DNA from: Henningerozyma blattae CBS 6284
Lineage: Eukaryota; Ascomycota; Saccharomycetes; Saccharomycetales; Saccharomycetaceae
Length of the DNA: 64,000 nt
Assembly (NCBI RefSeq): GCF_000315915.1
Contig: NC_020192.1
Coordinates: 124,001 to 188,000 of the forward strand
Direction of reading: 5' to 3'
Each line of letters begins with the position of its first letter. Within the stretch, counting starts at the first letter, position 1. The notes under the pieces were generated by a model that had not been told where the DNA came from, ran no database searches, and saw nothing but the letters and a program-made list of their open reading frames with translations. The position numbers and the translations under genes are program-made. Positions 41,769 through 51,909 of this stretch are shown here, piece after piece.

Positions 41769-41780
41769 TCTCGGCCGAGA
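41769..41780. promoter_or_regulatory. palindrome TCTCGGCCGAGA upstream of THI7
   Basis: A perfect 12-bp palindrome within TTCTCTCGGCCGAGAAA. The same 17 bases occur upstream of THI4 at 51234-51250. Adjoining inverted CGG half-sites (CGGCCG) fit a Gal4-type zinc-cluster dimer. It lies 1.12 kb before the THI7 ATG. Confidence 0.5.
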
Positions 41781-41975
41781 AACACCCATACACCATCATC
41801 CTTACACCCAATCACTGCTACACTGCTTTCTCTGTAACAATGGCCACCCCTCTCCTGAAACTTCCCCAGTTTGTACAGCATTCCATTATATTTCGCGTGC
41901 CATAATATCCACACATCAGCTTTTCTCACTGCATTTCTCACTAAGTTTCTCTCCCAGTACATTTCAAACACGTGC

Positions 41976-41985
41976 TAGCCGCCGA
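41976..41985. promoter_or_regulatory. URS1 core, candidate Ume6 site
   Basis: TAGCCGCCGA is an exact Ume6 core, one base after a CACGTG at 41969-41974. It lies 917 bp upstream of THI7. Use is inferred. Confidence 0.45.
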
Positions 41986-42901
41986 ACTCCCTGGATTTCT
42001 AGATTTTCCCTCATTGTGTTACCCGCCCCGCGTTCACTCTCAATGCATATTTCATTTCGCTCATTCATTGCATACCACATCGCTCCTCCATCCCGAATGC
42101 CCAAGAGAAAAAGAAACGCTCATAGAAACTCCCTACAATCGTGAACCACCCGGGCTATGTCCTAAAAAGGAAGCTTTTACTCTTACACCTCTCTTGGCGA
42201 AAATTAATGCCATTTATTTCAACCATTTTTTAAAGGTACACGGTCTTAAGGAAGATATTATGAAAATTTTTTCCAAATCCAATTTAACATATTATAATTA
42301 AAGTTTTTTTTCTTCAATATTCATTATTCATTATTTCAAAATTAATCAATCCGTATACAAATTCGTTATTCATATCTCGACGATTATTATTATTCCCCAA
42401 TATCCTTTCGTAGAAGGCACTTATCCCTGTAGAGCGAACATATCGGGGGGCCCACGACTCTCTTTCTCTCTTTCTTATGGGCACAATAGTTGCATTTTTC
42501 GTCTTGGCTTTTGCTTGCAAAAATTAAAATGAGATGCCTTTACATCGCTTGAGTTTATGTGTCAATTATATCATCTTTTCGCTCACTTTTTGCCTCTCTG
42601 CTGACTATTCATTGGCCAAGATCATATAAATATACTTTCAAGTTGTTTGTATGAATACCTAGCTACGTTGTACGAGTCAATACACCTTCATACACAAACT
42701 TGCAAGCAACAAAAATATTGATACTCTCTCGCTTTTGTTTCCTATAAGAAATTTTTTTTTTACTATTAAAATTTCTCTGTTTCAGCTCATCTCATCTCGT
42801 CTCATCGCATTGTATCATTATTTAAACACCCTGTATTTATCCATAAATTCCACACCCTTTCTCCATCTCTCCCCTTCTCTAATACCCCAAGCAACACAAC
42901 G

Positions 42902-48742: not shown

Positions 48743-49549
48743 GTTCCTTATTTCTCCTATTAATTTTATTTCTTACCTCTTCCGTATTTTCATCGAAAAT
48801 ATGCTAAATCCCATTTAATATTCATCAATCTCCAACTTATAGACATTTATTATTCTTTTACTTTTATATTAATTTCTTTATAGATCTATTGCCGATAAGG
48901 CAATTCCTTGAATTGATTTGTTTATCAAAAATACTACTCGCTCTGATTTACAACTTTTGCATTTAGATCTCTTCAGCTAATATAAAAAATTATATACATT
49001 TGATAATATTTTATAAATTTTGAGATAATATATTGAATTTTTTGAGGTTAGAAAACAATACATAATTAATTTCTAAATATATAAAAATAATTTTAATACA
49101 ATAAGGTTCCTATTCTAGTATGTCTATCTTTATATCATTCAAAGCTAACTTCTACAAAAAAAAGTAAGTTGATGATAAAAAGTTGCCGGAAAAAATCTTA
49201 ACATTTATATCCTTAGGAACGAGAGTAAAGCGACAGATATAAATTTATTTTTTCTAAGAAGTAAAAATTAAATGTGAAAAAAAATATATAATTTGTTTCA
49301 AAATATTTAAAGATTTTACTTTTTATTGTTTATCTTTATTTATTTTTTTTTTTTTTAAAGTAAAAATAAAATTAGGGAATAGCAGACCGTATTACTAACA
49401 AATATTAGAATCATATGGCCTTTAAGATCAAAAAATTCGTAAAAATTATATAAATATTAGTTTTTCTAATGTATACCTATTCTATAACATGATTATATAT
49501 GTATCGTTTATAAAATGTAATCATGATAAATAAGACAAGTTAATATCGA
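48743..49549. other. intergenic between convergent QDR-like and THI4 genes
   Basis: AT-rich; long T run near 49342-49357. No gene seen. Confidence 0.5.
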
Positions 49550-50533
49550 TTAAGCAAAGTGTTTTAAAATTTCTTCACCAGCCTTAATACCAGAGACAGC
49601 CATAGCACCAAAAGTTGGACCCATTCTGTTACACCCTTCTAATTCAGCGACTTCCATACCAGCAAAGTACATAGATTCGACACCAGAATAAGCACCAGCA
49701 CCTTTAACAACACCAGCTTCAGCATTATTCATATCTAAACCTTTCATACCACCTAATTTCTTGTTAGTATCAATTGCAACAATTCTCTTAGCAGAGAAGG
49801 CACCGAATGGACCGTCATGACCAGTAGTAGATAAGATAACACCATGTTTCTTAGATGGATCACGGGTACCGTCATTCTTGTAACCTGATAATTCAATAAC
49901 GTTTGGATCCATACAACATTGACTGTCATGATGTTGAGTAACTAAAGTCCAATTGGTAACAACACCAGCAACAGTAATTTCACCATTTGGACCAGCTGGT
50001 CTAGTAACTAAATCTTCGACTGCAGTAGCATTAAATAATTTGACATTTGGGAATTGTAAAACCTTGGATAAGACGGTAGAGGTGAACAAAGCAGCATGTT
50101 TGACAACAACATAATCACCTTCATCTTCAAATGGAATTTCTAATTCCTTTAAGAATAAATCAGCTGGTTTTCTCATGACCATGGCACTGAATAATTGACC
50201 ACCTAACCAAGCACCACCACCTGGAGCAACATTAGCTTCAATGATAGCAATTTTCAAGTCTGGTCTGTTTTTGGCAATAACATAAGCAGCTGACATACCA
50301 GAAGAACCACAACCAACAATGATGACATCAGAGACAGCAAATTTATCCATATCGTGGAAGTAACGAGAAGTCATAGCACGAGAAACAGTAGATTCACGAA
50401 TTGGTCTGAAAGCGAAATCAGACCAGTCATCAGTCTTAACAACATCTGATAGAGCATGGTTAATTGGAGTAGAGTTCAATTGTAATTGAGCTTGAGTGTC
50501 AGTGACAGTAGAAACTTCAGTAGATGGGGCCAT
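49550..50533 (-). CDS. THI4: Thi4, thiamine thiazole synthase
   Basis: The 327 residues compare with 326 in yeast Thi4 (YGR144W), and nearly every block is shared: [20 protein letters not shown], the dinucleotide fold [20 protein letters not shown] (GxGxxG kept, with Cys where S. cerevisiae has Ala), [52 protein letters not shown] and [11 protein letters not shown]. The enzyme builds the thiazole half of thiamine from NAD, glycine and sulfide taken from its own cysteine; that suicide residue is the second Cys of SQCC (Cys207 here). THI4 is not in this block in S. cerevisiae, so it has moved next to THI7. Codon use looks highly expressed. Confidence 0.98.
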
Positions 50534-51909
50534 TGCTATTAAATTTATTGAGTGTGTTGATATTTGCTTTTTGTTTGATGATTTATTATTATTATTATAG
50601 TTAATAAGAAGGAGAAGATTTAGAACTAATATTTTAAGCAGTTTCTATTCACCTTTTATATGTTTTAAAAATGAAATCTTTAAACAAGGATAAATGAATG
50701 ATAGTTATTGACGATGAGTAATGACCACAACCATCTCTCCTTTGCATAAAATCTAGTACATAAATAACTCATAAACACACACGTCATACTTAAAAGAACG
50801 TGCTCTAGATGAAATAAGCCCTATTGATAAAGAAACAATTAATTATGCATCCTGATGATCATCGAAACAAATTGCTATTAAAAATTAACTACATACTATA
50901 AAGAATAAATCATTATCGCTAAACGGAATTATTCCAATTAGTTACATATCTGAAGAGTGCTAACCATTGCCTATCTGCGCTAAACCTTTTTTGAACGTGG
51001 GATAGCTTATTTGTTTGGGGAAACATTGCGAGAAAACTACTCTCTAATTTTCTTGTGTTTTAAAAAAACTACAAAGGATAAGGAATATGGAATAAGATTC
51101 AGGCTCCATATTCATTATTCTCGAATCTTGAGATATGCAAGTTGAAATTTCTTTTCTTAATTTAGGTACCTACGAATTTAAAACTAGCTTGATCGAATTT
51201 TTCTTGAAATCACTTCCAACTATCATTTGATATTCTCTCGGCCGAGAAAGTAGTATTATACCGTGATAGCGCCGTGATTTGAAACAGAGTATATGTTTTA
51301 AGGGACTCCAAATATATTATTTGTTTAGAGAAAAAATTAAGAACTAGATCCAAACTTAATTGTTATCTAAAACATTCAACAATTGAAGCCCTAACCTCTC
51401 TATTTTCTGCCTTTTCTGACTCCGATATACTATAGAACTAACTTTATTTCGAAGAACAATAAGAGTAAATTATTCATTTATTCAAATATACTTGCTATTT
51501 TAACTTCATCCAAATATGAAACATTTTTCGCAATATACATATATTTTACAGAATATATTATACAAATTGAGCTAATTTTTCCGATATTGCGACCAGCTAT
51601 GAGTTTCAAAATTGTAGTATTAAGACATTCATTCAAATGCTAATATAATGCCGTTTAACAAAAATGATTCTTAATATCTTGAAACATTTGAACTATTTAA
51701 TATAATTGAAGACAGCTTACTTTTTTTCTTTCCTACAGTTAAAACTAGATGATAAGCTTTACTATATATAGTTGAGAAATTTCTTGATGAAAAGTAGATT
51801 ATTTATTTATAAAATGATATAGTTGAATAGGAAGGCTCGATGCAATAAATATTAATATAATAAGAAAAAAAGAAAATATGGCTAACAAAACAATGCCTAG
51901 CAAGAAAAA
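50534..51909. other. intergenic, THI4 promoter and COQ4 3' side
   Basis: 1.4 kb, AT-rich, no gene seen. Contains the palindrome at 51236. Confidence 0.5.
51236..51247. promoter_or_regulatory. palindrome TCTCGGCCGAGA upstream of THI4
   Basis: Identical to the palindrome upstream of THI7 (41769), including flanking bases (TTCTCTCGGCCGAGAAA at 51234-51250). It lies about 700 bp before the THI4 start and is the only such GC element in this AT-rich intergenic region. Confidence 0.55.

What the first reader, a model, noticed from the sequence alone, without database searches (positions are those of the whole stretch)
41769..51247. Shared palindrome TCTCGGCCGAGA in a THI7 - QDR-like - THI4 group
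The same 17 bases (TTCTCTCGGCCGAGAAA) occur upstream of THI7 (41767-41782 region) and THI4 (51234-51250). A 9-base core, CTCGGCCGA, plus a half-site lies upstream of the QDR-like transporter between them (46231). A 12-bp GC-centred palindrome is improbable twice by chance in AT-rich DNA. The gene set is a thiamine transporter, a major facilitator and thiazole synthase, and THI4 is not linked to THI7 in S. cerevisiae. CGGCCG inverted half-sites suit a Gal4-type zinc-cluster dimer such as Thi2. Inference: a relocated, co-regulated thiamine cluster in which the QDR-like protein may move a thiamine precursor or product.
Basis: partly seen in the sequence, partly recalled or inferred. Interest (0 to 1): 0.85.

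Follow-up and report, generated by a model that had tools for sequence, protein, structure and literature searches.

The report
Shared switch site for thiamine genes
In a budding yeast related to baker's yeast, one short mirror-image DNA sequence sits in front of both copies of three thiamine (vitamin B1) genes, and it looks like a control site that differs from the thiamine control sites known in other yeasts.

Summary
TCTCGGCCGAGA is exact at 41769 and 51236 and occurs only 7 times in the 14.04-Mb genome of Henningerozyma (Tetrapisispora) blattae. Outside the window, exact copies lie upstream of a second THI7 and of a THI73; one-mismatch copies precede a second THI4 and a second THI73. Thus 6 of 6 copies found of THI7, THI4 and THI73 carry it, in promoters whose pairs share no other exact match longer than 12 bases. 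A 16-bp form, TYTCTCGGCCGAGARA, defined on the THI sites, has 4 exact places and 1 with one mismatch, all THI. Against this, 3 of 7 exact and 20 of 26 places with 0-1 mismatch are not at THI genes. THI6 has a weaker copy; upstream stretches of three THI20, THI80, THI3 and four PDC genes lack it.

The thiamine link is supported. Thi2 as binder is not: no THI2 was found. The QDR-like gene has only a partial site and looks truncated. Unlinked copies carry the site too.

Best reading: a UAS for thiamine uptake and thiazole genes, bound by an unidentified CGG-binding dimer. Expression was not tested.

The parts
41767..41782 (.). 16-bp palindrome TCTCTCGGCCGAGAAA, proposed thiamine UAS of THI7 (12-mer at -1133)
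42902..44932 (+). THI7-type thiamine permease, copy a (PF02133); 80% identical to copy b on C1
46230..46241 (.). partial site CCTCGGCCGAAT, 3 mismatches to the 12-mer; probably not functional (inference)
47288..48742 (+). QDR/AQR-like MFS reading frame without the N-terminus of its relatives; an open stretch upstream in another frame may be that N-terminus (inference)
49550..50533 (-). THI4 thiazole synthase, copy a (PF01946); 97% identical to copy b on C2
51234..51249 (.). 16-bp palindrome TCTCTCGGCCGAGAAA, proposed thiamine UAS of THI4 (12-mer at -714)

Best explanation
The palindrome is the cis-element of a thiamine regulon in H. blattae. Shown: the 16-bp inverted repeat TYTCTCGGCCGAGARA (or a 1-2-mismatch form) lies 0.3-1.1 kb upstream of both copies of THI7 (uptake), THI4 (thiazole) and THI73 (transporter), and a weaker copy, with one half-site altered, lies upstream of THI6. 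THI2, THI5 and SNZ were not found, while THI3 and PDC2 were. Inferred: a Zn2Cys6 homodimer reads the abutting CGG/CCG half-sites and, alone or with Pdc2/Thi3, activates these genes when thiamine is short, in place of the missing Thi2. THI20, THI80 and PDC are then controlled by other means.
For: 7 exact 12-mers genome-wide, 0 for the backward control. All 26 places with 0-1 mismatch were examined: 6 precede THI genes. Out of sample, with the motif taken from the window only: 4 of 24 places fall in 16 THI promoters of 1.2 kb, P = 3.6e-8; with a looser set of 30 promoters of 1.5 kb, P = 1.1e-6. The 16-mer: 4 exact places and 1 with one mismatch, all THI. THI7 and THI73 pairs differ at 0.56 and 0.61 of four-fold sites, and apart from the palindrome the longest exact match between paired promoters is 12 bases. 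The THI7 pair keeps the 16-mer at -1135 and -1115 in the same orientation. THI73 identity. THI2 not found. THI3 and PDC2 found.
Against: 20 of the 26 places with 0-1 mismatch, and 3 of the 7 exact ones (MCH-like, CDC48-like, ERV-type/C2H2 gene pair), are not at THI genes. Paralogs are not independent: counting only the THI73 pair, 2 of 24 gives P = 5e-4; counted as one event it is about 0.03 (my arithmetic). THI73 and the second THI4 were recognised after their sites were found. The 16-mer was defined on the THI sites. The THI20, THI80, THI3 and PDC stretches lack it. The THI7 pair of promoters also has weak local matches of 35-46 bases at 72-77% identity, E 0.004 or worse. There is no expression, binding or sister-species evidence.
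Confidence: 0.68

Rival explanations
1. A broader zinc-cluster regulon (carbonyl/oxidative stress or NADPH supply) reads CTCGGCCGAG; the thiamine genes are only part of it.
For: 0-1-mismatch sites also precede two aldo-keto reductases, a short-chain dehydrogenase, glucose-6-phosphate dehydrogenase and an Svf1 gene. Some promoters carry repeated sites within 2 mismatches: 3 in L037, 2 in L026, 2 in L033.
Against: None of those sites reaches the 16-mer at 0-1 mismatch; all five places that do are THI. The remaining non-THI places show no common theme: kinase, F-box, ribosomal protein, AMP-binding, symplekin/PTA1 and mannosyltransferase genes among them.
Confidence: 0.2
2. The site is the ancestral Thi2 element and a strongly diverged Thi2 still binds it.
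For: CGG half-sites suit a Zn2Cys6 protein. Thi2 relatives are listed from Saccharomyces, Torulaspora, Lachancea, Zygosaccharomyces and Eremothecium.
Against: Two Thi2 probes hit only through the N-terminal zinc-cluster region of other proteins, at most about 40 bits. The S. cerevisiae Thi2 element as I recall it (GMAACYNTWAGA) is not palindromic.
Confidence: 0.06
3. Chance, or plain inheritance of promoter DNA by gene duplication.
For: The THI7, THI4 and THI73 pairs are paralogs; the THI7 promoters keep some weak local similarity.
Against: Paired promoters share no other exact match over 12 bases, and three unrelated gene families share the site.
Confidence: 0.03

Closest known systems
S. cerevisiae THI regulon (Thi2, Thi3, Pdc2)
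   Same: Overlapping target genes (THI4, THI7, THI73, THI6; regulon membership in S. cerevisiae recalled); THI3 and PDC2 homologues present.
   Different: THI2 not found; THI20, THI80, THI3 and PDC stretches lack the element; the element is a CGG/CCG palindrome, unlike the recalled Thi2 motif.
Candida glabrata THI UAS (TTCCCTBTAAWTG) and CgPMU3 UAS (PMC6945020, passages read)
   Same: THI2, THI5 and SNO/SNZ are lost there (PMC4807840, passages read); here THI2, THI5 and SNZ were not found and SNO was not probed. A different cis-element is in use.
   Different: No match within 1 mismatch of either element in the 13 upstream stretches scanned, 11 of THI-pathway genes plus the QDR-like and MCH-like genes.
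Zn2Cys6 dimer sites with inverted CGG half-sites (Gal4 class)
   Same: Inverted CGG...CCG.
   Different: Zero spacing with conserved TCT/AGA flanks. S. cerevisiae Rds1 and Yll054c motifs with CGGCCG are recalled only; the listing did not confirm them.

Membership tests
S. cerevisiae-type THI regulon | Thi2 regulator present | tested here: not met
   Best hits 38 and 40 bits, N-terminal zinc-cluster region only; six-frame search, introns not modelled
S. cerevisiae-type THI regulon | Pdc2 and Thi3 present | tested here: met
   PDC2-like C6:905052 (71%), THI3-like C2:2097105 (51% to the Pdc1 probe)
S. cerevisiae-type THI regulon | THI20, THI80 and PDC share the element | tested here: not met
   No site within 2 mismatches in 3 THI20 and 1 THI80, 4 PDC and 1 THI3 upstream stretches of 0.3-1.1 kb
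S. cerevisiae-type THI regulon | Thi2 motif GMAACYNTWAGA (recalled) in THI promoters | tested here: inconclusive
   Matches within 2 mismatches in 11 of 13 stretches, one with 1 mismatch (THI20 on C2); no background was measured
S. cerevisiae-type THI regulon | Repression by thiamine | not testable with these tools
   No expression data
C. glabrata THI UAS | TTCCCTBTAAWTG in THI promoters | tested here: not met
   Only 2-3-mismatch matches, scattered
Zn2Cys6 dimer site | Inverted CGG half-sites | tested here: met
   CGG-CCG abutting in all six THI7, THI4 and THI73 sites; altered in the THI6 site
Zn2Cys6 dimer site | Bound by such a protein | not testable with these tools
   Binder unknown
TPP riboswitch | Rfam match near THI7/THI4 | tested here: not met
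   0 matches at gathering score in window 39000-53000; the other THI loci were not scanned
Thiamine gene cluster including the QDR-like gene | Intact gene with the same full site | tested here: not met
   3-mismatch sites only; frame without the N-terminus of its relatives

The most novel reading that the evidence does not exclude
After losing THI2, THI5 and SNZ, the H. blattae lineage rewired its thiamine response onto a new 16-bp palindrome read by a zinc-cluster activator not previously linked to thiamine. That activator controls only uptake and thiazole supply, leaving the rest to Pdc2: a split thiamine regulon.
Probability: 0.4. Interest if true: 0.65.

Novelty: new variant of a known kind. 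Interest (0 to 1): 0.52.

Why it matters
How a regulon survives loss of its activator is an open question, studied so far in C. glabrata, where the element is reported as permissive (PMC6945020, passages read). Here a sharp, easily mutated element marks the gene set in a second yeast without a detectable Thi2, so the replacement regulator can be looked for directly.

Tried and rejected
TPP riboswitch: no Rfam match in window 39000-53000. C. glabrata elements: no match within 1 mismatch. Recalled Thi2 motif: 2-mismatch matches in most stretches scanned, one 1-mismatch match in a THI20 promoter, no background measured, so inconclusive. Top Thi2-probe hit C7:287973: an 1132-aa protein with a zinc cluster and PF11951 that resembles recalled Arg81, not Thi2. 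Zinc-cluster ORF in the window at 33413-35269: resembles recalled Ume6. PHO3-type acid phosphatase: none at 1e-8 with a recalled probe. Five of the 10 two-mismatch 16-mer places (C1:1706488, C2:621175, C3:205937, C4:1109692, C8:936482) could not be assigned a gene; for C3:205937 a 501-base stretch shows no reading frame open across it. Sister species were not examined: the tools gave no other yeast genome (one search says this genome has no relatives here). Literature: the listings showed no paper on this element or on thiamine regulation in this species, judged from titles and starts of abstracts; the library is open-access only. Term finds in PMC11304959 and PMC10246790 gave no motif passage.

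Full report
OBSERVATION. The 17-mer TTCTCTCGGCCGAGAAA is exact at 41766-41782 and 51233-51249, and its core TCTCGGCCGAGA at 41769 and 51236. The genes are a PF02133 permease (42902-44932 +), an MFS protein (47288-48742 +) and Thi4 (49550-50533 -). The species is Henningerozyma blattae CBS 6284: the protein at L007 is 100% identical to TBLA_0C03100; Tetrapisispora blattae is its recalled older name.

GENOME TEST. The exact 12-mer occurs 7 times in 14.04 Mb and its backward control 0 times; composition predicts about 0.07. Replacing the centre GGCC by CCGG, CGCG or GCGC gives 0, 1 and 2. With one mismatch there are 19 more places; at up to 2 mismatches 145 against 137 for the control, so only near-exact copies can stand out. 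For all 26 places with 0-1 mismatch the neighbouring reading frames were examined and most neighbours scanned against Pfam. Six precede THI genes: THI7a (-1133), THI7b on C1 (-1113), THI4a (-714), THI4b on C2 (-835, one mismatch), THI73a on C3 (-325) and THI73b on C3 (-315, one mismatch). The other 20 do not; they include 3 exact ones, at MCH-like and CDC48-like genes (recognised by eye) and at an ERV-type/C2H2 pair. THI73 is named by its annotated homologues (72% to the N. glabratus protein). A paralog search found no further close copy of THI7, THI4 or THI73: the next matches to the THI7 and THI73 parts are 31% and 26%. So 6 of 6 copies carry the site. By mechanical ORF calling 23 of 26 places are intergenic.

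STATISTICS. The motif was taken from the window and tested outside it. Of the 24 remaining places 4 fall in the 1.2 kb upstream of 16 THI-pathway genes, P = 3.6e-8; with 30 promoters of 1.5 kb it is 1.1e-6. Paralogy weakens this: counting only the THI73 pair, P = 5e-4, and counting that pair as one event, about 0.03 (my arithmetic). THI73 and the second THI4 were recognised only after their sites were found. Separate evidence comes from the paralogs themselves. THI7 and THI73 pairs differ at 0.56 and 0.61 of four-fold sites, THI4 at 0.25. The longest exact match between paired promoters, apart from the palindrome, is 12 bases; the THI7 pair has weak local matches of 35-46 bases at 72-77%, E 0.004 or worse. 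The THI7 pair keeps TCTCTCGGCCGAGAAA at -1135 and -1115 in the same orientation.

EXTENDED MOTIF. TYTCTCGGCCGAGARA, read off the THI sites and so circular in part, has 4 exact places (THI7a, THI7b, THI4a, THI73a), 1 place at one mismatch (THI73b) and 10 at two. The ten include THI6 and THI4b, three non-THI places (Svf1 gene, ERV-type/C2H2 pair, CDC48-like) and five that I could not annotate. At up to 3 mismatches there are 78 places against 57 for the control. The three non-THI exact 12-mers differ from it at the outer positions.

WHAT LACKS IT. Three THI20 genes and THI80, THI3 and four PDC genes have no site within 2 mismatches in the stretches held (0.3-1.1 kb). The QDR-like gene has only 3-mismatch sites, one of them at 46230; its two 60% paralogs on C5 have no 0-1-mismatch site near them. 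Its frame aligns with QDR-type proteins over 475-480 residues, starting at their residue 63 or 99, with a poorly matching patch near residues 166-174. An open stretch just upstream lies in another frame and may be the missing N-terminus. I read this as a decaying gene or a sequencing error (inference).

PATHWAY STATE. With recalled S. cerevisiae probes THI6, three THI20 and THI80 were found; THI5 and SNZ were not. PDC2, THI3 and four PDC genes were found, a PHO3-type phosphatase was not. THI2 was sought with the S. cerevisiae protein and the Torulaspora globosa protein: only the N-terminal zinc-cluster region of other proteins matched, at most about 40 bits. This resembles C. glabrata, which has lost THI2, THI5 and SNO/SNZ (PMC4807840, passages read) and uses other elements (PMC6945020, passages read), not found here within 1 mismatch. 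The recalled Thi2 motif occurs within 2 mismatches in 11 of 13 stretches, without a measured background, so it is not excluded as a second element.

MECHANISM. Inferred: a dimeric CGG-binding protein, most likely Zn2Cys6, binds the palindrome and induces uptake and thiazole genes on thiamine shortage. The binder, the direction of regulation and any role of Pdc2/Thi3 are not shown. The main rival is a broader regulon: sites with 0-1 mismatch also precede two aldo-keto reductases, a short-chain dehydrogenase, G6PDH and an Svf1 gene, some with two or three sites.

CLUSTER. Only one of two THI7 and one of two THI4 copies are linked here. From recalled gene order, COQ4, RAV2, SPC19, FAR10/VPS64 and LIP2 next door (families) are near-ancestral neighbours of THI7, so THI4 and the QDR-like gene would be the newcomers. 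Linkage is not needed for sharing the site.

Noticed in passing
window 39394-40251 (-): Fragment of a reverse transcriptase/RNase H (PF00078, PF17919) of a retroelement, left of the THI7 promoter.
   Followed up: no
L026 2556 and 2571 (C7:287055, 287070): Two one-mismatch palindromes 15 bp apart between an aldo-keto reductase and a large zinc-cluster gene resembling recalled Arg81; the latter is the best Thi2-probe hit in the genome.
   Followed up: partly
L037 4001, 4016, 4070 (from C2:2115833): Three palindromes within 2 mismatches in 81 bp upstream of an aldo-keto reductase resembling a pyridoxal reductase (recalled resemblance).
   Followed up: partly
C7:206339, C2:961123, C2:963310: Three THI20-type genes, two in tandem, although THI5 and SNZ were not found: predicted need for external pyrimidine (HMP) or thiamine.
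   Followed up: partly
window 46938-48742: QDR/AQR-like MFS gene whose frame lacks the N-terminus of its relatives and has a mismatching patch: possible pseudogene or sequencing error.
   Followed up: partly
L008 4001 (C3:1325687): Exact 12-mer 0.5 kb upstream of an MFS gene resembling the monocarboxylate-transporter (MCH) family (recalled resemblance): a further candidate transporter.
   Followed up: no
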